From a virus: 37,632 bases of DNA. The notes beneath the pieces are model-generated. The model searched no databases. It had not been told where the DNA came from and was given only the letters and a program-made list of their open reading frames with translations. Numbering within the stretch: the stretch's first letter is position 1; each line of letters begins with the position of its first letter. Location: the IMG/VR virus record IMGVR_UViG_3300037200_000222, positions 1 to 37,632 of that record; one strand, given 5' to 3'. This document shows positions 10,729 to 35,911 of the stretch, one piece after another. The position numbers and the translations under genes were made by a program.

Positions 10729-11124
10729 ATGAGCAGAGCAGCCGGGCTGTGCGTGAAATGTGGCGGTCCCAAACGCGGACGTTCAGCCCGGACTGCTGCC
10801 CCCATTGGTCAGTGCGAAAGCTGCCGGGGAGATATCTGCCTGAAGCACGCACGATGGCAGGGGGACTTTTACCTCTGTTATAAGTGTGAACGTAAAGGCA
10901 AGAAGAGTGACATTAACATCAGGATCGAGCTGCCTGACGAACTGGATTCCGTGCTAGCCACCCAGGAGCTGGAAAGCCAGCCTGAATCAGGGGAGGAGGT
11001 GATGCCCTGTGACTACCCCGCTGCCTCTCGGCTTGGCGCCTTACCTCAGCCCTCTTACGCTGATGACCGCTCCTACGGGGATCGATTTAGGACTTCGAGA
11101 CGATTCCTCCTGGTGACGACGTAA
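10729..11124 (+). CDS. small zinc-finger protein; uncertain C-terminus
   Basis: ATG at 10729; the upstream AAGG is a weak ribosome site. 131 residues to TAA at 11124. The first 55 residues carry CVKCGG (8-13), CESC (29-32), C37/H40 and CYKC (50-53), enough for two zinc sites. Residues 64-92 form an acidic tail. From about residue 92 the frame runs over the connector gene, whose GTG at 11009 follows GGGGAGGAGG (10990-10999), for about 116 bases. That part (PAASRLGALPQPSYADDRS) looks like a shadow. Other neighbours here overlap by only four bases, so the real stop may have been lost to an indel just upstream of 11009. Function unknown. Confidence 0.65.
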   Translation: MSRAAGLCVKCGGPKRGRSARTAAPIGQCESCRGDICLKHARWQGDFYLCYKCERKGKKSDINIRIELPDELDSVLATQELESQPESGEEVMPCDYPAASRLGALPQPSYADDRSYGDRFRTSRRFLLVTT

Positions 11125-12002
11125 CTCCAGCGCAGAATATCAATGAAATCTGGAATATGTGCTCGCGGGCGACCGCACGCGTCGATGAATACTGCAACCA
11201 GGCTCTCCGTGCAACTATCGACACCGAATTGATGCACGGTCCCGATTACAGGGTCACCAGCGGTCCCGGGGCAGGGGGCGGCAGCCCCACTCCTTACTGG
11301 GGCAACGCCGGGTACAACGCCCGGATCGTGCTGTCCCGGTGGCCGGTGCTGGAAGTGACGAATGTCCAGACCTGCCCGAATAGCCTGTGGCCACGACAGT
11401 GGACGGCACTCCCCACTGGGTACTACGAGCCGGAATCTCCCCCGATCGGGATCTACGGGTCTGCTGCAGCCGGGGGGGCTGCCCAAGGCGGGCAGGCGAT
11501 CATCATCGCCCCCGGGTATATCACCTGGAACTACGGGCGCAACGGCTGGGCTATCCAGATCACCTACATTAACGGGTGGCCGCACACGGAGATCACGGAG
11601 TATATCGCGGCTGGCGTCAGCGAGATTCCCGTGGACGATACCACCGGCTGGGCGACCGAGAACTACTTCAATACCTTCACCGGGGCGACCGGGACGATCA
11701 AGGACTCGGGTCAGCAGGAATCAGTTCACGTCACCGAAGCCTCCGTGGCATCCGGACCCGGGACGCTGACTCTCGCCTCCCCGACGAATTACCCCCATCA
11801 GGCAGGAACCCTGCTCACTACGCTGCCTTCCTCCGTGGAGCAGGCGTGCATCTACTTCGCCACCGCGGAGGCGCTCACAAGAGGTGCCACCTCCACCACG
11901 ATCCATTCCATCGGCGGGCACGCGCAATCCTCCGGTCAGTCCAGTGCCGAGCTGATCTCCGAAGGCGAGCTTCTCCTGAAGGCATTCAAGAGGACGATTT
12001 AG
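11009..12002 (+). CDS. head-tail connector protein, frame broken near 11090
   Basis: A GTG at 11009 with GGAGGAGG ending 9 bases upstream opens TTPLPLGLAPYLSPLTLM then TAPTGID, the usual N-terminus of actinophage head-tail connectors. That frame closes at TGA 11114-11116. The rest (FETIPPGDDVTPAQ, then CSRATARVDEYCNQALRAT and on) is in the +1 frame, open from 11091 to TAG 12000-12002. Joining GAT (11084-11086) to TTC (11094) skips seven bases and gives a smooth GIDFETIPPG protein of about 328 residues. Residues from about 175 to 245 form a Thr/Gly-rich beta insert; the C-terminal helix returns to the connector fold. Taken alone, the second frame would start at ATG 11157 and lack the conserved N-terminus. 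Either a programmed hop or a frameshift mutation or error. Connector role is from sequence style and position. Confidence 0.75.
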
Positions 12003-16588: not shown

Positions 16589-17724
16589 ATGCGAGTCTTG
16601 TGGCATTCTTGCGCCCCATGGGCTCCTAGTTTAGCGGTTACGGAACCCAGACCGCGGTATGGGTCCAGGAACTGGCGAAGATGGGTCATGAAGTATTCGT
16701 CAGCGCCTACTGGGGACTGAGCGGCGCCCCGACCCAGTGGAATGGCATTACCATTCTCCCGGGATTCGGCGCGAACTACTGCTCCGCCTCCCTCGGCGGG
16801 CACGCCAAGGCACTGCAGCCTGATCTGGTCATCACATTGGGTGATGTCTGGGTACTGGACCACAACATCCTCAAGGAAATACCGGTCGCGCACTGGCTGC
16901 CCAATGACTGCCGCCCGATGTCCTCCGCGGACTCCGCGGTAGTGAATGCCTCCGGGGCGCAGCTCATCGCGATGTCCCGCTTCGGCGAGAAGCGCTTCCG
17001 CAACGCGGGCTTCGATCCCCTGTATGTCCCGCACGGAATCGACATGGAGACCTTCAAGCCCCCGGAGGACCGTGAGGAACTCCGGGCGAAGTACGGGCTG
17101 AATGACCGTTTCGTCATCGGGATCAACGGCGCGAACAATGACGCGATCAGGAAGGCTCTCCCGGAGCAGATGCTCGCGTTCGCGAAGTTCCATAAGGACC
17201 ACCCTGAGGCGCTGCTGAGCCTGCACACGGGGGTCCACCAGGACGGCGGTCAGGACCTGGAGGCGGTCGCGGAGAACCTCGGTATCACCGACTGCGTGCA
17301 AGCCGTGGACCAGTACCGGTACCAGTCCGGCTTGGTGCAGCCAGCCGATCTCGCGGAATGGTACAACTGCCTGGACGTGCTTTCCTGCTGCTCCTACGGC
17401 GAGGGCTTCGGGCTCCCGATCATGGAAGCGCAAGCCTGCGGCGTCCCGGTGATCACCACGAAAGCCTCCGCGATGGAGGAGCTTAATCCCCATGGCATCC
17501 AGGTGGACGGGGAGCCTTTTTACAACGGAGTTCACAAGGCGTGGTGGATAAAGCCGAACATTTCGGAAATGGTAGCAGCATATGAAGCTATCCATTCTGG
17601 TGAACCAGATCGTGACAAGCTTCGCGCCTTCGCAGAAGAATACGAAGTCAGCAAGATCTCCAAGGCGTATATGAAGCCAGCAGTAGATGAGCTGCTCGCG
17701 CGGATGGCGGCTCGAAGGGGGTAA
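16589..17724 (+). CDS. GT-B (family 4-like) glycosyltransferase, frame broken near 16630
   Basis: ATG at 16589 behind GGGAGG (16577-16582) opens RVLWHSCAPWAPS, the normal start of GT4 enzymes. That frame drifts into nonsense and stops at 16718-16720. The continuation GYGTQTAVWVQELAKMGHE is in the -1 (+2) frame from 16636. Jumping from AGT (16628-16630) to GGT (16636) skips five bases and restores APSGYG, the Gly loop that grips the nucleotide sugar, for a product of about 376 residues. Without this, the first start in frame is ATG 16681 and the loop is lost. The C-terminal Rossmann domain has EGFGLPIMEAQACGVPVITT (from about nt 17401), the E-x7-E donor motif. It would add a sugar to a virion or host target. 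It is either a programmed event or a broken gene. Confidence 0.8.
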
Positions 17725-18301: not shown

Positions 18302-21300
18302 ATGCCGGAATTGCCAAAGGTAAGCCAAGACTTCACAGCTGACGCAACAGCTTATTCTGATGCAATCGATGAGATGATCACGAAGAACGAGGAGTTGGTC
18401 ACCTCTATCAGGAATGTCCAGGACGCAATTGATGAAATGCACGGCAAGACCATCGATATCGGTTTCGATGAAGATGAGATAATGGAGCAGCTCGCGTACA
18501 TCAACGAGATTATCGATGATGCGACACGGGACCGGACAGTTACCATCCTGGTGAAGTATGTCACCGAGGGCAATCCGGAGGATGTCCAGGCTGCGACGGA
18601 GCTGATTAAGCAGGAGGTCATTCCCGCTAACAATGACAATGCGCTCGGCGTCACGAGCGATTACATGCAGGACCTCGTTGACGAAGCCACCAAGCTTAAC
18701 GATGTGATGAACGAGACGGGCACCCTTGGCGATGAGGGAGCTGCCGCGCTTGAGCGTCTCGCAGACGAGTATGACCTTGCCGGGAGTGCAGCCTCTAGGC
18801 TGGCAGCACAGGAGCGAAGCCTTGCTGCGGCCTTCATCGAGGACAAGATCAATTCCGGCGACCTTGCGGAATCCGCAGATGGCGTCGCCTCCAAGATGGG
18901 TCTTGCCGGAGAGGCTGCCGATGATCTCGCTGCCGGATATGAACGACTGCATAACAATACGGTATTCACTGCCGATGACATGAATGTCCTGAATGACGCT
19001 CTCGCTCGCACTGTAGTGGATGCGGAAGGCGTTACCCGCTATATTGAGCCCGCGGCAACTGCGACTAAGGCTCTCGGGCAAGCCGCTGCTGACTCCATTC
19101 CGACATGGTTCTCCTGGACGCGCCAGTTCCAGACGTTCGGAGGCGCGGCGGAGATGGCACTGGGGAAGATGGTCCCCCTGGTTACCTCCATAGCAGCATG
19201 GCATCTGGTCCTGGACAGTGTAGCCGAGGGCATTATCGCCCTCTCGGGATCGCTTATTGCACTAAGTGCCGCCGCAGTCGGACTTGCCCCCTCGTTCCTG
19301 GATATCTACAATCACCTGACTGCCACCCGGGATCAGATCGAGGCATTCGGCATCGAGATCGCCCCGTTCAATCAGTGGTTCCTGAACCTGCAGCATGCGA
19401 TGCAGACCCAGGCGATCGAACTGTACGGGGAAGCCCTTCTTGACATGGGCAAAGCGGGCAGCTCCACCGCCACCGCCATCGAGAATGCCGGCGGTGCCAT
19501 TGACCGGATGGGCGCGAAGATCTCCGAGTGGGTCGGATCGAACACCGATTTCGCCCAGACGATCTCCAAGGGCGCCGATTACGCGAAGGACCTCGGGGAT
19601 ATCCTGGGGAACCTGATCGTCATCATCGATGAGCTGATCCGCGCCGACTCAGGTGTCGTCAATATCGTCCTGACCTTCGCGAGGGTGTTCACTGGAGCAA
19701 TCGTCGCGGTCCTCGGATTCTCCGAGACCCTGGATAAGGTACTTCTGATCGGGCACGCGTTCCTGCTCTGGGGCGGGCTGCTGTCCTCGTTCCTGATCAA
19801 CCTCGCGCTGGTGTTCCTGAAGCCCGTCGCGGGCATCCTCTCGTTCATCGCCGGAACCAAGAGCGCGACGGTGGCGATCGGGGAATTCGAGGCAGCGCAG
19901 TCAGCTCTCGCAGGAGAGGAAATAGCCGCTAATCCCCTCCAGAAGATGGGGATCGTTCTTCAGTCCCTGGTCGTATCACTGAAGGGCATGGGGACTGCCA
20001 TCGCAACCTGGGCGGCAGAAGTCGGCACCAGCATGGCGGAAGCTGAAGGAGTTGTCGCTACTGGCGCAGCCGGGATCGAGGGAATCATCGCGGTCCTTGA
20101 TATCGTCCCGGGAATAGTATGGATAGCTGCCATTGCAGCCGGAATCGGGTATCTCGCGTACCAGACTACCCAGGCAAGCGCCTCCACTGCAGCTTTTATC
20201 AGTAAGCTAAATGAATCCCTTGGTCAGATGAATATCTCCCAGCAGGCGACTCAGGGAATGACTGATGCTGTCGGGCAGCTGGACGCCAAGATCGCCTCGA
20301 CAAATGTCAGCAGCGAACTGCAGAACTGGGGCGGGAGCTGGCAGCACTTCGGGGATGATGCCCGCGGGGTCATTACCGATATGGTCTCAGGAATCGCGAG
20401 TCTTTCCAGCGGCAACGTGATCGGCGGACTGGAGAAAGTCGGAGATGCCGTCAAGGGCATCTTCGTTCCCGGGGCAGGTGCTGCCCAGCAGGCAAAAACT
20501 GACATCAGTGCCTACGAGCAGGCTATCTCCGGCTTGACCAGCAGCCAGGCGACCCTGTTCAAGGTCGCCGGGGCGACGATGCAGCAGAACGGGATGACGT
20601 TCACTCAGGCGCTGGGACTCATGGATGCCGCCGGGATCAAGTCCGGAGAATCCTTCCAGGAGGATATGACCCAGGTCAACGGGCTGATCACGGGCTACAA
20701 GAACCTTGGCGTCCAGGGCGGGCTCCTCGGGAACAGCATCAACGCGATCACCCTGCAGACCGAGGACCAGGAATCCGAGATCAGCAAGATCACCAGCGCC
20801 TGGACGAACTTCATCAGCCTGGTCACCGGGGGGCAGTCGGCATTCGACACCTTCGGGCAGCAGATGTTCTCGGTCGCGCAGGCGCTCGGGGCGACCTCGA
20901 CCACCCTGGAGACGGAAAGCGGCAAGGCGAGCGTCAAGGTCGAGACGACGGCAACCTCGATGTCCTCGCTTGCCTCCGCGGTCAAGGACTCGAAGACGAG
21001 CTTCAACGGGCTCTCCAGTGCCAGTCTCAACCTGCAGCAGACTTTCCTCTCCGGGGTAAGCGACGCGAGCAACCAGATAAACAGCCTGCTGGAACTGTCT
21101 TCTGCCGCCGGGGCGGGCAAGCAGGGGCTGGCGGAGGTCTCCCAGGCGGGCAAGGACATGGTTGCCGAGATGCTCCCGGTGGCACAGGGCAGCGCAGCCG
21201 CGACCACGGACCTGTACGCGCTGGCTCAGCAGGCGGGCTACACGGGAAATGACAGCTTCAAGGCGCTGGCTACCTGGGTGGGCAATACCCAGAACCCGAT

Positions 21301-29225: not shown

Positions 29226-29780
29226 GTGGCAGGAATTTTCTGGGTAATGAACGCAGCATTCCCGACGACCGCGCCCCCGGTCAAGATGACCACCGGGACC
29301 TCCACCAAGACGCTGCTGCAGATAGCGACCCCTTCCACGACCTCGATCCAGGTCATCGAGTGGGGCATCTCCTTCGACGGGGAGGTCGTCTCCACCCCGA
29401 TCGAGTGCGAGCTTGTGGATACCGAGACGGTAGGCGCGACCTCGCTCACCTCGGTGACCCCGGCTTTGTACGGGACGCCCACGGGGGAGGCAAGCCTGTG
29501 CGTCGGCGGGGCCTCCGCGACCGGGTTCAACTCGGGAAGTTCAACCGAGGGCAGCATTACCAATGTCCGCTACGGGGACGTGCAGCTCATCTCCCCGACG
29601 AACCAGTACGTGAAGCAGTTCCCGCTGGGGCAGTCATTTGTCGTGCCTGTATCTCATTTCCTGCGAATCCGGGTCACTGCAGGGACTGCCGTGAATGCGT
29701 ACGCATATTGCATCTGGTCCGAGTTATGCTTTGTGATCGTCGCCCTCGTCATAACGGCTAGGAAAGGGGGGATTGTGTAG
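29226..29780 (+). CDS. beta-rich tail tip protein
   Basis: GTG at 29226 with AGGAG and the recurrent TGTGTGGC context; 184 residues. It opens AGIFWVMNAAFPTTAPPVKM and alternates short strands (STTSIQVIEWGISFDG, VSTPIECELVDTE), ending in a hydrophobic strand CFVIVALVITARKGGIV. The hydrophobic end is too short and late to call a membrane anchor with confidence. Similar style to the 5624 and 5959 products; probably a structural tip or fibre protein. Its TAG stop (29778-29780) overlaps the proposed GTA start of the giant minor tail gene. Confidence 0.7.
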   Translation: MAGIFWVMNAAFPTTAPPVKMTTGTSTKTLLQIATPSTTSIQVIEWGISFDGEVVSTPIECELVDTETVGATSLTSVTPALYGTPTGEASLCVGGASATGFNSGSSTEGSITNVRYGDVQLISPTNQYVKQFPLGQSFVVPVSHFLRIRVTAGTAVNAYAYCIWSELCFVIVALVITARKGGIV

Positions 29781-32700
29781 CACGCACCGGACGCTCCTTT
29801 CCCCTGAACTGGCTGAATAAGTTCCGCCCGGTCAAGAATGCCCCGATCCAGGTCGAAGCCGCCGCGGACCTCCCGGGTACCACCTCGGGACTGTTCCCCA
29901 GCACCCTGGAACCAGTAGTCACCCTGCCCGGGACCGCGAACCTCCTCTCGGAGAACGGTCCGCACGCGCTGCTGAACGCCGGGGCGACCCTGACCGCCGG
30001 GGGGCAGACTGAGGGGGCGGTCCTCCTCGCCGGGGCTGGGAACATCGCGGCGCAGGGCACCTCCTACAGCAACCCCTCGGTCATCCAGCAGGTCACCGGG
30101 AGCAACACCGACGGCTACGGGATGGGCACCTCCACGATGTCCACGTCCGACGGGAGCTTCCTGGTTGCCTTCCTCGGCTGGGACACCACCAATGCGAACC
30201 TCTCGCTGACTGAGCCCGCGAATCCCCCGCCGTACTGCCCCGCGGTGAATGTCACTGATTCCGCGGGCAACCTGTGGCAGCAGATAGGGATCACCGTCTC
30301 TCAGGGGTATTCTTCCCGGTGCGCGGTCTGGGCGTGCGCCAATGCGGCAGAAGTCACCTGGGTCTCGGTGGGGCTGACCGGGTTCGCCGCGAGCCTCGCC
30401 TGGACTATCGCCGAGATGGCGAACATGCCCCAGGATATCGGGCTTGATTTCTCCTCCGGGGATACCACCGCTCCCCTGCAGGTTGATTCCCTGACTCTCG
30501 CAGGTGATGCGGCCGGTTCCTCGGACATCGTGTTCACGATGCTGGCGCTCCCGGTGAGCACCTCGGTCAATCCTTCCGTGACTTCCGGTCCCGGGGGATT
30601 CACCGCGCTGGATTCCGTGGTAGCAGGCGTCTCCGGGGGCTCTGGGATCGCGATCTACCCCTACTGGCAGTACGGGGTCACCGAGGGAACCGTCGAAGCC
30701 GAGTACTCGATCAATGCCACCGACGTGATGGCGGGAGTAGTCGCCGGGGTCTCCTCGGATGCCGCGGGACCCCCTCAGGAGAGCTTCAGCTTCCCCCTGG
30801 TCATTGTCGAGGCAGCCTTCGGGGCATCCCCGGGGGATCTCACCAAGTCCGTGGACTACCTCGTGGACAACGAGGGGATCTACTGGACCGATATCAGCGA
30901 GCGGGTCCTCGGGGACCAGGCGCAGTCCCGGATCACCTGCTCCCGGGGCAGGCAGTACGAGCTGTCCCAGGAGGAAGCCGGGGAACTCACCGCGTACCTG
31001 AGCAACCTCGACGGGGCATTCGCCCCCGGGAATACCGCATCCCCGTATTACAGCAATGCGCTCAACGAGAATATGTCATTCGAGCTGACGACCGACCCGT
31101 GGACCCCATACGGGAATGCCACCCTTGCTCAGTCAGCTGCTTATGCCTACACCGGGAACTGCTCACTGCAGGTCACTCCCGACGGGGTGACGGCTGATCC
31201 CGGGGCATCCTCGGAACTGGTCGATATCACCGGGACCGCGGGACGCATCGGATCCCAGGTGGCAGCCTCGCAGATCTTCGTCAACTCCGGGTCCTGGACA
31301 GCCCCCGCGGGGATCTCCGCGGTGACAGCCGAGTGCTGGGGAGCCGGAGGCGGCGGCGGGGGTTCCGATGCCACCGCGAATTCCGCCGGCGGCGGCGGCG
31401 GCGGCGGCGAGTATGCCGCGGCAGGCATCGGGGTGACCCCGGGGAACAGCTACTCTTTCACCGTGGGTGCCCCCGGGACCGGGGGTAACGGGTCAGGCAC
31501 CGAGACGATCACCGTCACCTACCTGAGCCCGACTATCTGGACCGCGCCTGAAGGCGTCACCTCCGTCCAGGTGCAGTGCTGGGCTGGCGGCGGTAACGGC
31601 GCGGGAGCCACATCTGCCGGAATCGGCGGCGGCGGCGGGGGAGGCGGCGAGTATGCCGCCGAGACTGCCGTCGCGGTCACCCAGGGGCGCTCCTATGACA
31701 TCAACGTCGGGGGCGTATCCGGGAACTCCTCCTTCACCGGGGACTCCAAGACCGTGACGGCGCACGCCGGGGGGAACGCCAGCGGGTCTTCCGGGGGTGC
31801 CGGGGGAACGGGATCTTCCAACACCACCCACTATCCCGGGGGCGCCGGGGGCAACGGCGAGACCTTCCAGTCCGGGACCTCCGACGGGGACACCTTCAAC
31901 GGGGAAGACGGCGCCGGCGGTCAGGTGACCAACACCGTGACGATCGACACCACCCTGAACTTCAACAACGAAGCCATCACCGAGATGACCATCACCTGCG
32001 GCGGCGGCGGCGGGGGGGGGCAGGGCGGCGGTGCCTTCGGCGAGGGCTACGGCGGCGGCGGCGCGGGCGGCGGGGGTTATGCCTCCGGGGTCATCCCGGT
32101 AACAGCAGGCTTGGTCTACACGCTGTACTGCGGCAACGGCGGCTCCGGCGGGGATAACGGCACCGACGGGCAGTCCGGGGGCTACTCCGGGGTCACCGGG
32201 AACAGCGGTTCCCAGGTCATCGCGTACGGCGGCGGCGGGGGCAACAACAACGGGCTGGGCGGAGCCGGGGGCGGTGCATCAGGCTATGCCGGGGGCTACG
32301 CGATCGGGGGTTCCGGCGGCGGTGACGGCGCGAGACCCGGCGGCGGCTACATGGGCGGCGGCGGCGGCGGGGCCGGCGGCGGCGGCGAGAACGGCGCAGG
32401 ACAGGACGCGCACCCGAGCGGGACCACGACCCGGCAGCCGGGAATCGGCGGCGGCAACGGCTCCGGCGGCGGCTGGGGCTCCTCCAGCCTCGGCTCCGGG
32501 GATGACACCGGCGGCGGCAACGGCGGCGACGGGAACGGGAACTTCGGCGGCGGCGGCGGCGGCGGGGCCGGCTCCGACACTCTCACCACCGGGGCTGCCG
32601 GGGGCACCGGCGGCGCGGGCTGGATCTCCTACGCCTACGGGAACCTGCTGGACACCCCCCTCGGCGGCGGCGGCGGGAGTTCTGCTGCCCCCTCGGGCGC

Positions 32701-35700
32701 GGGCAGCGCGGGCGGCACCACCACCGACACGGGCACGGCAGCCCTCGGCGGGACTGCCCTGACCTCGGGCGGCGGCGGCGGCAACGGCGGCATCCCCACT
32801 ATTCCCGCGCAGGCGGGAGGTGCCCCGGGCGGCGGCGGTGGCGGCGGCTACAGCACCGCCGGGGGTTCCGGCGGCGCCGGTCAGGTCATCATCACCTACA
32901 CCACGACCACCTCGGTGTCCTCGGGGACCGCCGGAGGCTACACCAGCTTCCCCGGGGACTCGGCAGCGGTCACCGCGTACGGGGGTCTCGGCGGTTCCGA
33001 GGGGATCTCCGGGGGGCAGGGCGCAGGCGGTTCAGGCGGTTCCGGCTCGGTCAACTCAGTCAATTACAACGGCGGCGCGGGAGCATCCGGCGTCTCCGCG
33101 ACCGGGTACGGCGGCGGCGGCGGCGGCTCCGGGGGCACCTCCTCGGCAGGCAACGCAGCCAGCGGCATCACCGGGGCTCCCGCGGTCACCGGGGGAGCAT
33201 CCGGCGGCGGCGGCGCGTACGCCACGGGCACCGGACTCGATATCGCCCCTGTCACCCCCTCGGTAGCAGGAGGCGGGGGAGGCGGCGGCGCCGAGAACGC
33301 GGGCTTCTCCGCGGCAGCCGCGGGAGCCCCGGGGCAGATCAGGCTGACTTACACCCCGAGCGGGACAGTCAGCGCCTCTGCCTGGTTCTACGTGCCTGCC
33401 GGGTGGTCTCCCGGAGGTCAGGTGAACATCACCTGGTACGACTCGGGGATGGCGGAGATCTCCTCGACGCAGGGACCTCTCGTCCCTGTCCCGGCGGCAA
33501 CCTGGACGCAGGTCGCGAGCACCGATGTCAGTTCTCCCCCCGGAGCCGAGTACGCGGTCTTCACCCCGGTGCTCTCCGGAACCCCGTCAGCCTCGGACGT
33601 CTTCTATATTGACGAAGCCGCGATCGTCCCCGGGTCCGCGGTGGTCCAGACGGGTCTGGTCCGGCTGGAGACCCCGGTCAGGGTCTCTGCCTGGTGGGCG
33701 GGACGCAGGTACCCGATCTGGTTCGGGTACGTGGAGAGGTTCCCGCAGGAGTGGCCGGAGCTGCCCCAGTGGGGCATGTCCCAGATGGCCGCGACCGACG
33801 TCGTGAGCGTCGCCTCCGCGGTGAGCATGTTCTCCGCGATGCAGGGCGAGATCCTCGCGGACAACCCCTACAGCTACCTCCCGTGCAATGAGCAGTACAC
33901 CTCCTCGGAGGAAGGTCCGACCCTGCAGTTCAGCCTCCTGGACGCGAACGGGCTGGTCGCGCTCAACTACGCGCCGCAGAACCAGACCCCGGGAGTCTAC
34001 GGGGACGGGCTGAATTCCGCGGTCTACACGGGACTTCCCGTCAACCTCCTCGGGGACCAGAACACGGGTCTCGGGACCTCCAATTACCAGGCGCAGGATT
34101 CCGGGGACCGGGGACCCGCGGTCCTGTACTACGATCCGCAATTGCCCGTGAATTCCTCGGGCTCAGGTCTGACCATCGAATTCTGGTTCACCTATGACGG
34201 GACCGTCCAGGACTGCACCCTCCTGACAATCTACGGACCCCCGAGCACCTTCAAGGCTCCGGCGAGATCAGGTAACGGGGCTCTGGGCTATGTCCTGGTC
34301 AACGGGACATCGAGCATCGTCTCGGTACACGGACCCGGGAATGCCGTGCTCAGCTTCCCCATCGTCCTGAACGCGAACAACCCGCAGCAGCTCGTGCTGG
34401 TCATGACAACCTCCAACGGGGATACGAACGTCTACTTCAACGGGGCACTCCAGGGCACTGTCATCCTGGGAGTCTCGGAGACTTTCTACGCGGTGAACCT
34501 GGGTCCGGGAAGGTACTCCTACGACGCGGACAACGCGTATTCCTATGAGTCCTTCAATTACACCGCGGCACATCTCGCGATCTACTCTTACCAGCTGACC
34601 GCGCTGCGGATCGCATCTCACTACAACACCGGGTTCACCGGGGCATCGGGAGTGAGCGCGGCGCAGAGATTCGCGCAGATCCTCACCTGGGCGACCCTGG
34701 GACTGAAACGCGGGTACTACTGGTGGCAGGGAGCCACCGGGAACCCGGAGGTCACCCAGATCGGGAGTGCCTACGCGCTCAACGGGAGTTCAGCGGCAGA
34801 TGCCATCAACGGACTGGAGCAAGCCGAGGACGGGCATTCCTATGCGCAGGCGAACGGGAGCTATGTCTACCTGGAGCGCTGGGGAACCTACAATCTCTCC
34901 TCGCAGGCGACCTTCGGGGATATCCCGGTCCCGGCAGGCGGGGTCGCGTTCAGCCCCAGCACCTTCAGCGGCGGAACAGGCACCTGGACCGCGACGAATG
35001 CCGCGCTGACCTTCTCTCAGGCGCAGGTCTACTACGGGACCGGGAGCGCGCTGCTGACCCCGGCCGGCGGCGGCGCCCTGTTCGCGCTGATGAACTCCGA
35101 GTCGTTCGCTGTGTCATCAGGGGATGTCTATCTCGCGGAAGCCTGGGTCTATTCTGTCAGCGGCTGGGACACCATCCAGATCGGGTGCGACTGGTACGAT
35201 GCCAACGGCGACTACCTCTCTACCACCGCGGATGTCCTCGCGGCCCCCCCGGGAGCCTGGGCGTACATTTCCGCCTCGGATCTCATGACGGTCACCGGAG
35301 CCGTCTCGGGGCAGATGCGGATTTCCCAGATCGGGTCACCCGGATCAGGGAACCTGCTGTACGTGAGCTACGCCGCGGCTATCTCCGCGAGCCCGGAGAT
35401 CCCGTATCTGCAGGACACCACATTCGATTACGATAATTCCTACCTGTATAACCAGGTGCAGACCACCCAGCAGTCCGGTCCCAACACCCTGGTGATCGCG
35501 AGCGAGCGGAACATCCCCTCAATCGGTCTCTACTTCGACAGGTCCGCGCTGACATTCACCTCGGACGCGGTGAGCCCGTATGACATCTCCGACCTGACCA
35601 CGTGGTCACTGGCGAAATACGGGAACCCGAGCCTGCACCTGAAGCAGGTGACCGTGGACGCGGCATCTGCTCCCTATTCCGCGTTCAGCCAGCTATTGCA

Positions 35701-35911
35701 CCTTGATATAGGCGATATAGTCACCGTGATAAGGCGTCCCGTCGGAGCCCCGCCGATATCTCAAGCCTGTATAATTGAGAGAATCGAGCATAATATCGGA
35801 GCATCCTACTGGCGCACGACATTTCAGCTGTCTCCGTACGCTGTCGGAAATGCGGTTATGACCGTGGACGGGTCTGATAATACACCTGGCAGTTTCAATC
35901 TCGGCTGGTAG
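29777..35911 (+). CDS. giant minor tail protein with nested glycine-rich and sugar-binding-like modules
   Basis: The open frame runs from 29777 to TAG at 35909-35911, about 2,044 residues. The first ATG is at 30122, but 115 upstream codons are coding-like and begin ARTGRSFPLNW, typical after the initiator of this family. The codon there is GTA in a GTAG overlap with the previous stop, with AAAGGGGGG upstream. Residues 341-425 and 1293-1375 (LETPVRVSAWWAGRRYPIWF) are split minor-tail core. 428-488 with 1195-1288 resemble one CBM4/9-like sandwich split by residues 498-1190, a Gly-rich region with at least three WTAP or TITC-type modules. 1443-1615 look LamG-like (LTIEFWFTYDG, IYSYQLTALRIASHY). 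1722-1872 resemble a second CBM. 1875-2044 end in the usual minor-tail segment LDIGDIVTVIRRPVGAPPIS. Probably the host-contacting tip hub. Confidence 0.82.
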   Translation, partial: VARTGRSFPLNWLNKFRPVKNAPIQVEAAADLPGTTSGLFPSTLEPVVTLPGTANLLSENGPHALLNAGATLTAGGQTEGAVLLAGAGNIAAQGTSYSNPSVIQQVTGSNTDGYGMGTSTMSTSDGSFLVAFLGWDTTNANLSLTEPANPPPYCPAVNVTDSAGNLWQQIGITVSQGYSSRCAVWACANAAEVTWVSVGLTGFAASLAWTIAEMANMPQDIGLDFSSGDTTAPLQVDSLTLAGDAAGSSDIVFTMLALPVSTSVNPSVTSGPGGFTALDSVVAGVSGGSGIAIYPYWQYGVTEGTVEAEYSINATDVMAGVVAGVSSDAAGPPQESFSFPLVIVEAAFGASPGDLTKSVDYLVDNEGIYWTDISERVLGDQAQSRITCSRGRQYELSQEEAGELTAYLSNLDGAFAPGNTASPYYSNALNENMSFELTTDPWTPYGNATLAQSAAYAYTGNCSLQVTPDGVTADPGASSELVDITGTAGRIGSQVAASQIFVNSGSWTAPAGISAVTAECWGAGGGGGGSDATANSAGGGGGGGEYAAAGIGVTPGNSYSFTVGAPGTGGNGSGTETITVTYLSPTIWTAPEGVTSVQVQCWAGGGNGAGATSAGIGGGGGGGGEYAAETAVAVTQGRSYDINVGGVSGNSSFTGDSKTVTAHAGGNASGSSGGAGGTGSSNTTHYPGGAGGNGETFQSGTSDGDTFNGEDGAGGQVTNTVTIDTTLNFNNEAITEMTITCGGGGGGGQGGGAFGEGYGGGGAGGGGYASGVIPVTAGLVYTLYCGNGGSGGDNGTDGQSGGYSGVTGNSGSQVIAYGGGGGNNNGLGGAGGGASGYAGGYAIGGSGGGDGARPGGGYMGGGGGGAGGGGENGAGQDAHPSGTTTRQPGIGGGNGSGGGWGSSSLGSGDDTGGGNGGDGNGNFGGGGGGGAGSDTLTTGAAGGTGGAGWISYAYGNLLDTPLGGGGGSSAAPSGAGSAGGTTTDTGTAALGGTALTSGGGGGNGGIPTIPAQAGGAPGGGGGGGYSTAGGSGGAGQVIITYTTTTSVSSGTAGGYTSFPGDSAAVTAYGGLGGSEGISGGQGAGGSGGSGSVNSVNYNGGAGASGVSATGYGGGGGGSGGTSSAGNAASGITGAPAVTGGASGGGGAYATGTGLDIAPVTPSVAGGGGGGGAENAGFSAAAAGAPGQIRLTYTPSGTVSASAWFYVPAGWSPGGQVNITWYDSGMAEISSTQGPLVPVPAATWTQVASTDVSSPPGAEYAVFTPVLSGTPSASDVFYIDEAAIVPGSAVVQTGLVRLETPVRVSAWWAGRRYPIWFGYVERFPQEWPELPQWGMSQMAATDVVSVASAVSMFSAMQGEILADNPYSYLPCNEQYTSSEEGPTLQFSLLDANGLVALNYAPQNQTPGVYGDGLNSAVYTGLPVNLLGDQNTGLGTSNYQAQDSGDRGPAVLYYDPQLPVNSSGSGLTIEFWFTYDGTVQDCTLLTIYGPPSTFKAPARSGNGALGYVLVNGTSSIVSVHGPGNAVLSFPIVLNANNPQQLVLVMTTSNGDTNVYFNGALQGTVILGVSETFYAVNLGPGRYSYDADNAYSYESFNYTAAHLAIYSYQLTALRIASHYNTGFTGASGVSAAQRFAQILTWATLGLKRGYYWWQGATGNPEVTQIGSAYALNGSSAADAINGLEQAEDGHSYAQANGSYVYLERWGTYNLSSQATFGDIPVPAGGVAFSPSTFSGGTGTWTATNAALTFSQAQVYYGTGSALLTPAGGGALFALMNSESFAVSSGDVYLAEAWVYSVSGWDTIQIGCDWYDANGDYLSTTADVLAAPPGAWAYISASDLMTVTGAVSGQMRISQIGSPGSGNLLYVSYAAAISASPEIPYLQDTTFDYDNSYLYNQVQTTQQSGPNTLVIASERNIPSIGLYFDRSALTFTSDAVSPYDISDLTTWSLAKYGNPSLHLKQVTVDAASAPYSAFSQLLHLDIGDIVTVIRRPVGAPPISQACIIERIEHNIGASYWRTTFQLSPYAVGNAVMTVDGSDNTPGSFNLGW
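31350..33300 (+). repeat. GGC/GGN-rich microsatellite-like coding stretch
   Basis: Inside the giant tail gene, long runs of glycine codons (many as consecutive GGC, for example near 31387, 32000, 32353, 32549 and 33110) alternate with short Ser/Thr/Asn/Tyr spacers. The runs are prone to slippage and recombination, so copy number may vary between relatives. At protein level they match the Gly_rich-type tail modules that start with WTAP and give GGGGGG loops. Confidence 0.8.

What the first reader, a model, noticed from the sequence alone, without database searches (positions are those of the whole stretch)
11084..11093. Connector gene interrupted; GAT and GAC flank the gap
The conserved start of the head-tail connector (11009 on) and its body are in different frames. 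The smooth family sequence APTG-I-D-F-E-T is restored by passing from GAT (11084-11086) to TTC (11094), omitting TTAGGAC. GAT and the skipped-to GAC code for Asp and can use one tRNA, so a peptidyl-tRNA hop (as in T4 gene 60 and described short forward hops) is possible. Skipping TTAG only (GAT-GAC-TTC) also works. Loss of this gene would normally kill the phage, so either recoding, an assembly indel or a defective genome applies.
Basis: partly seen in the sequence, partly recalled or inferred. Interest (0 to 1): 0.8.

Follow-up and report, generated by a model that had tools for sequence, protein, structure and literature searches.

The report
Ribosome hop triggered by UUA codon
A soil phage's essential head-tail connector gene is split by seven extra bases that start with the otherwise unused leucine codon TTA, and relatives carry different TTA-led inserts at nearly the same spot and in other genes, so these viruses probably make the ribosome hop over the codon rather than carrying a broken gene.

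Summary
GAT 11084-11086 is followed by TTAGGAC 11087-11093, and the body of the connector resumes at 11094 in another frame. It is not an assembly error: three divergent relatives carry the identical 7 bases. Others carry different inserts of 5, 7, 10, 11 or 16 nt within four codons of the same place; ten relatives have none. TTA-led inserts also sit in a second gene of the window (glycosyltransferase, TTAGC at 16631) and a third gene of a relative. Lengths fall in all three frame classes, which excludes a fixed +1 or -1 slip. Landing codons often match the take-off codon (GAT/GAC here). tRNA-rich relatives carry 31-43 tRNA genes but no tRNA-Leu(UAA). Best explanation: UUA in the A site stalls the ribosome and peptidyl-tRNA hops to a codon just downstream. 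The precedent is the likely UUA bypass in the terminase of Streptomyces phage phiHau3; plaque-forming isolates carry such inserts there. No protein evidence exists and the host is unknown, probably Actinobacteria.

The parts
10990..10999 (+). Shine-Dalgarno-like GGGGAGGAGG upstream of the connector start
   Evidence: direct reading of the sequence
11009..11086 (+). N-terminal coding part of the head-tail connector, GTG start, VTTPLPLGLAPYLSPLTLMTAPTGID
   Evidence: conserved in relatives; pN/pS 0.31 over 11 interrupted relatives
11084..11086 (+). take-off codon GAT (Asp)
   Evidence: last codon of the conserved upstream frame
11087..11093 (+). skipped segment TTAGGAC: in-frame TTA 11087-11089; landing codon GAC 11091-11093; TAG 11088-11090 in the downstream frame
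   Evidence: identical in L003, L008, L031; absent from 10 uninterrupted relatives
11094..12002 (+). body of the head-tail connector (resume codon TTC 11094)
   Evidence: 59-74% identical to relatives; PHROG 442 head-tail adaptor in 9 of 21 family members, best E 1.9e-5
16589..16630 (+). N-terminal part of a glycosyltransferase gene, MRVLWHSCAPWAPS; take-off AGT 16628-16630
16631..16635 (+). second skipped segment in this window: TTAGC (in-frame TTA; landing AGC 16633-16635)
   Evidence: split-HSP scan and comparison with intact relatives
16636..17724 (+). body of the glycosyltransferase (Glyco_trans_1_4), resume codon GGT 16636
   Evidence: (E 3.3e-12)

Best explanation
The seven bases are a short recoding element. 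The ribosome translates from GTG 11009 to GAT 11084-11086. The next codon is UUA, which these phages hardly ever use and for which, where they carry their own tRNA set, they have no tRNA. The A site stays empty, the peptidyl-tRNA-Asp lets go of GAU, the mRNA slides, and the tRNA re-pairs at GAC 11091-11093. Decoding resumes at UUC 11094 and gives the normal connector (...APTGID-FETIPPG...). The glycosyltransferase at 16589-17724 is read the same way (AGT, TTAGC, AGC). Shown here: the sequence facts, the constant TTA, variable insert length, lack of TTA elsewhere, absence of tRNA-Leu(UAA) genes in five tRNA-rich relatives, and selection on both flanks. Inferred: that the hop occurs, that lack of UUA decoding is the trigger, the exact landing site and product, and the actinobacterial host. 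A role as a gate that lets late genes be made only where UUA is not read is speculation.
For: (1) All inserts start with in-frame TTA: 9 distinct ones in the connector, 5 in the glycosyltransferase, 1 in a third gene. Two of them (L109, L114) came from searches that required TTA; the other 13 did not. (2) TTA is otherwise almost absent: 5 of 123,996 codons in confident genes, one of these the G017 insert, against CTA 168 and TTG 372. (3) Lengths 5, 6, 7, 9, 10, 11, 16 cover all classes mod 3, so the common element is a gap, not a fixed shift. (4) The landing codon equals the take-off codon at the first two bases in 6 of 14, against 2.3 when shuffled (P 0.01); with phiHau3 8 of 16 (P 0.0007). 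(5) pN/pS about 0.3-0.44 on both sides of the gap in interrupted members. (6) Five relatives carry 31-43 tRNA genes with Leu anticodons CAA, GAG, CAG and no UAA. (7) Cultured Streptomyces phages phiHau3 and GreenWeasel carry two TTA-led 10-nt inserts in the terminase and BroPlease one, with matched codons GGC..GGT and TCT..TCC; Zemlya and phiScoe2 have none. A UUA-linked bypass was already proposed for phiHau3 (PMC5009743).
Against: No peptide, ribosome profiling or reporter data. In more than half of the inserts the landing codon matches only partly (GGT/AGC, AGT/TGC, GAT/GGC, ACA/TCA, ACA/ATT), so the landing rule is loose or the product differs in those. No conserved RNA structure marks the site. 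The host is unknown; WhiB was found in one uninterrupted relative only. Some frame breaks in the split-HSP scan have no TTA, for example an HNH gene in G013 at 18481; most of these look like gene boundaries or antisense ORFs and were not all resolved.
Confidence: 0.77

Rival explanations
1. Programmed +1 (or -1) ribosomal frameshift at or near the UUA codon, with part of the insert translated, instead of a hop over a gap.
For: The window insert is +1 mod 3, and UUA as a slow A-site codon resembles Ty1-type +1 sites with their slow AGG codon (PMC5009743). L004 has a CCC-CCG run that could slip.
Against: Inserts of 5, 6, 9 and 11 nt would need +2, 0, 0 and +2, and the two in-frame inserts need no shift at all. 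Only removal of the whole insert gives the family sequence in every case. No shared slippery heptamer.
Confidence: 0.12
2. Sequencing or assembly error, or a genuine inactivating indel in a defective phage.
For: Metagenomic contig; reads are not available here.
Against: Identical insert in contigs from different samples at 59-64% protein identity; every insert begins with TTA; purifying selection on both sides; the same design in plaque-forming phiHau3, GreenWeasel and BroPlease.
Confidence: 0.03
3. Two separate products: a short N-terminal peptide, and a body started internally, for example at a non-canonical start after an AGGA-like sequence inside the insert, or at ATG 11157.
For: The window insert contains AGGA; ATG 11157 is the first ATG in the body frame.
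Against: Other inserts (TTACC, TTAATGCGAC, TTACCTGAGC) contain no such motif; the 22 codons between gap and ATG are under purifying selection (pN/pS 0.41); no ATG/GTG/TTG lies between in the window; the N-terminal part is conserved in the same way (pN/pS 0.31).
Confidence: 0.05
4. The segment is removed at RNA level (splicing or editing) or decoded by a special tRNA.
For: Exact removal restores the protein; one relative has a tRNA with an odd predicted 4-base anticodon.
Against: Segments of 5-16 nt are far too short for any known intron; no tRNA for UUA was found; the odd tRNA has anticodon tagg and lies in an uninterrupted relative.
Confidence: 0.03

Closest known systems
[quoted passage not shown] 2016, PMC5009743)
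   Same: In-frame UUA directly after the take-off codon, short gap, synonymous take-off and landing codons, late essential gene, intact sister phages.
   Different: Other genes (head-tail connector, glycosyltransferase and a third family), unrelated uncultured phages, gap of 5-16 nt in all frame classes including in-frame gaps, nine variants at one spot, looser landing match.
T4 gene 60 50-nt bypass
   Same: Peptidyl-tRNA would leave one codon and re-pair at a synonymous codon downstream, joining two frames.
   Different: 5-16 nt instead of 50, sense codon UUA instead of a stop in the A site, no conserved stem-loop found.
byp elements of Magnusiomyces capitatus mitochondria
   Same: Short inserts in conserved genes, an unused codon in the A site, sometimes imperfectly matched landing codons (PMC5009743).
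   Different: Bacterial virus instead of mitochondrion, shorter, always UUA-led, only one to three genes seen per genome.
Hopping over a starved sense codon in E. coli under aminoacyl-tRNA limitation
   Same: Empty A site at a starved sense codon makes peptidyl-tRNA slide forward to a matching codon (PMC5009743).
   Different: Laboratory starvation or overexpression instead of a conserved viral gene feature.

Membership tests
UUA-triggered bypass (phiHau3 terminase kind) | in-frame UUA immediately 3' of the take-off codon | tested here: met
   phiHau3 itself read
UUA-triggered bypass (phiHau3 terminase kind) | synonymous take-off and landing codons flanking a short gap | tested here: met
   window GAT/GAC and AGT/AGC; in relatives fewer than half match at both first bases
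UUA-triggered bypass (phiHau3 terminase kind) | UUA avoided in the rest of the genome | tested here: met
UUA-triggered bypass (phiHau3 terminase kind) | host in which UUA is read by a scarce tRNA (bldA in Streptomyces) | tested here: inconclusive
   WhiB in one relative points to Actinobacteria; no relative found in GTDB genomes
UUA-triggered bypass (phiHau3 terminase kind) | bypass demonstrated at protein level | not testable with these tools
   described as 'likely' for phiHau3 too in PMC5009743
T4 gene 60 bypass | stop codon after the take-off codon | tested here: not met
   A-site codon is UUA in every case
T4 gene 60 bypass | take-off stem-loop in the mRNA | tested here: inconclusive
   no common or unusually stable fold, z from +1.85 to -1.8
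T4 gene 60 bypass | nascent-peptide stimulator | not testable with these tools
   the N-terminal peptide is conserved, but equally so in uninterrupted relatives
programmed +1 frameshift | constant one-nucleotide shift | tested here: not met
   insert lengths 5, 6, 7, 9, 10, 11, 16
head-tail adaptor (PHROG 442) | profile match of family members | tested here: met
   9 of 21 members, best E 1.9e-5; low-confidence model resembles head-to-tail adaptor/gp6 proteins

The most novel reading that the evidence does not exclude
A group of actinobacterial phages uses UUA as a dedicated hop signal: they purge UUA from their genes, omit tRNA-Leu(UAA) from otherwise near-complete tRNA sets, and repeatedly gain and lose tiny UUA-led hop cassettes early in late genes, which would make those genes readable only in cells where UUA is not decoded (for example vegetative, not differentiating, mycelium).
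Probability: 0.35. Interest if true: 0.92.

Novelty: new variant of a known kind. Interest (0 to 1): 0.8.

Why it matters
Natural ribosome bypassing is known firmly from T4 gene 60 and yeast mitochondria only, and its use in Streptomyces phages has been a suggestion from one terminase (PMC5009743). Fifteen distinct UUA-led inserts in three genes, with intact sister genes beside them, turn that suggestion into a testable rule (UUA in the A site, a gap of 5-16 nt, near-matching landing codon). Cultured phages (phiHau3, GreenWeasel, BroPlease, Zemlya) are available for a direct test. It also warns that such genes may be annotated as broken.

Tried and rejected
Assembly error (identical insert in independent contigs). 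Simple +1 slip (insert lengths in all frame classes). RNA stimulator structure: 16 segments folded, nothing in common. Host by relatives in GTDB genomes: connector and capsid profiles found none. Cultured relatives of the connector: only a weak Thermoanaerobacterium phage match. Search of solved structures by sequence: nothing; the AlphaFold model of an intact relative is poor (pLDDT 57), and the PDB second look lists only common beta-barrel matches. The primary paper on phiHau3 could not be found in the library, so I cannot say whether the second TTA insert in its terminase was noted there. A third possible site in the window (in-frame TTA at 29724) could not be judged, since no relative covers it.

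Full report
What was checked. The window is an IMG/VR virus record of 37,632 bases, 62% G+C. The connector starts at GTG 11009 and keeps the family sequence to GAT 11084-11086; the body of the protein lies in another frame from GAC 11091 to the stop ending at 12002, with TAG at 11088-11090 closing that frame upstream.

Relatives. Profile scans of IMG/VR gave relatives at 59-74% protein identity. Ten distinct ones read straight through (ACN GGN ATH GAC TGG in nearly all). The others carry inserts within four codons of the same place, written take-off[insert]resume: GAT[TTAGGAC]TTC or TGG in the window, L003, L008, L031; GAT[TTAGGGC]TGG in L109; GAT[TTAATGCGAC]TGG in L015; GAT[TTAATCTGGC]TGG in L012; GGT[TTACCTGAGC]ATC in L002; GGT[TTAGC]ATC in L033; ACT[TTACC]GGC in L018; ACA[TTAGGGCCCCCGGTCA]GGC in L004; ACA[TTATCGAAATT]GGA in L030. 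Leaving out the insert restores the family sequence in each. All begin with an in-frame TTA.

TTA is a codon these phages do not use. In genes of 150 codons or more with several relatives, 21 contigs together show 5 TTA in 123,996 codons, one of which is an insert, against 168 CTA, 372 TTG and 5,398 CTG. In the window the only in-frame TTA codons in genes with relatives are the two inserts; one more, at 29724, lies in an ORF without relatives.

Other genes. A scan for proteins whose two halves lie in different frames of a relative, which did not use TTA, found the connector again plus two more genes. The first is a glycosyltransferase (PF13692): AGT[TTAGC]GGT in the window at 16631, AGT[TTAGC]GGG in G006, AGT[TTAAAGC]GGT in G019; reading all its relatives added two inserts that keep the frame, AGT[TTAAAATGC]GGA in G017 and CCT[TTACCC]AGC in G001, and a pattern search added AGC[TTAATGC]GGT in L114. 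The second is a small gene of unknown function in G002, TAC[TTAAC]ATC. In-frame inserts that begin with the same shunned codon cannot be explained as frameshift sites. All five sequenced contigs with a glycosyltransferase insert also have the connector insert, and none of nine connector-intact contigs has one (Fisher P 0.03, not corrected for descent). Some other frame breaks without TTA appear; most look like gene boundaries or antisense ORFs and I did not resolve every one.

Evolution. On a tree of 22 connector proteins the insert changes state at least four times by well-supported branches and eight times by parsimony. L015 and L017 (without) are sisters, with pN 0.03 and pS 0.41 between them. 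Both flanks are under purifying selection in interrupted members: pN/pS 0.31 upstream, 0.41 over the 22 codons after the gap, 0.44 over the body. So both parts are translated, most simply as one protein, and inserts come and go.

tRNAs. Relatives G002, G013, G009, G015 and G020 carry 31-43 tRNA genes each, covering nearly every codon, always with Leu anticodons CAA, GAG and CAG and never UAA. G002 and G013 have the connector insert, the other three do not. The window fragment has no tRNA gene. G015 has a WhiB gene (PF02467, E 1.1e-17), a family of Actinobacteria and their phages (established knowledge), so the host group is probably Actinobacteria. [quoted passage not shown]

Precedent. The review by Atkins et al. 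(PMC5009743) describes likely bypassing in the terminase of Streptomyces phage phiHau3, tied to a UUA codon after KGWG. I read that genome (JX182369): GGC[TTACTCCGGT]AAG, and a second insert TCT[TTAACGGTCC]ACG in the same gene. GreenWeasel has both (first one TTACCCCGGT), BroPlease only the first, Zemlya and phiScoe2 neither. These are isolated phages and the large terminase is essential in tailed phages (established knowledge), which indicates that such inserts are tolerated in life. Architecture and on/off pattern are those of the connector inserts.

Mechanism. I conclude that an empty A site at UUA makes the peptidyl-tRNA leave its codon and re-pair a few bases on. Landing codons match the take-off codon at the first two bases in 6 of 14 (2.3 expected by shuffling, P 0.01), 8 of 16 with phiHau3 (P 0.0007); the rest differ at one of the first two positions. 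No RNA structure is shared. Shown: sequence facts. Inferred: the hop, its trigger and its product. A regulatory purpose is open.

Identity of the gene.

Noticed in passing
L068:12357-12441 (G015 32357-32441) and L063:12506-12590 (G009 72506-72590): An 85-nt RNA gene inside the tRNA arrays matches tmRNA (RF00023, model positions 1-374) but with the whole mRNA-like part missing (2 nt instead of about 290 in G015); a tag-less mini-tmRNA with a G3-U70-like acceptor pair, perhaps a decoy against ribosome rescue.
   Followed up: partly
L042, L054, L055, L063, L067, L068, L074: Arrays of 31-43 tRNA genes in relatives cover nearly all codons but lack tRNA-Leu(UAA) in all five contigs.
   Followed up: yes
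L068:341-416 (G015 20341-20416): A tRNA gene with a predicted four-base anticodon (tagg).
   Followed up: no
window 29226-30122: The frame of the large gene 30122-35911 is open and coding-like from 29762 but has no ATG/GTG/TTG before 30122; the gene before it (29226-29780) has an in-frame TTA at 29724 and AAAGGGGGG near its end, so a further recoding or fusion is possible.
   Followed up: partly
L039:2924-2933 (phiHau3 terminase): A second TTA-led 10-nt insert with matched codons (TCT/TCC) in the phiHau3 terminase, present in GreenWeasel and absent from BroPlease.
   Followed up: yes
L067:12905-13231 (G015): WhiB family gene (PF02467), pointing to an actinobacterial host.
   Followed up: yes
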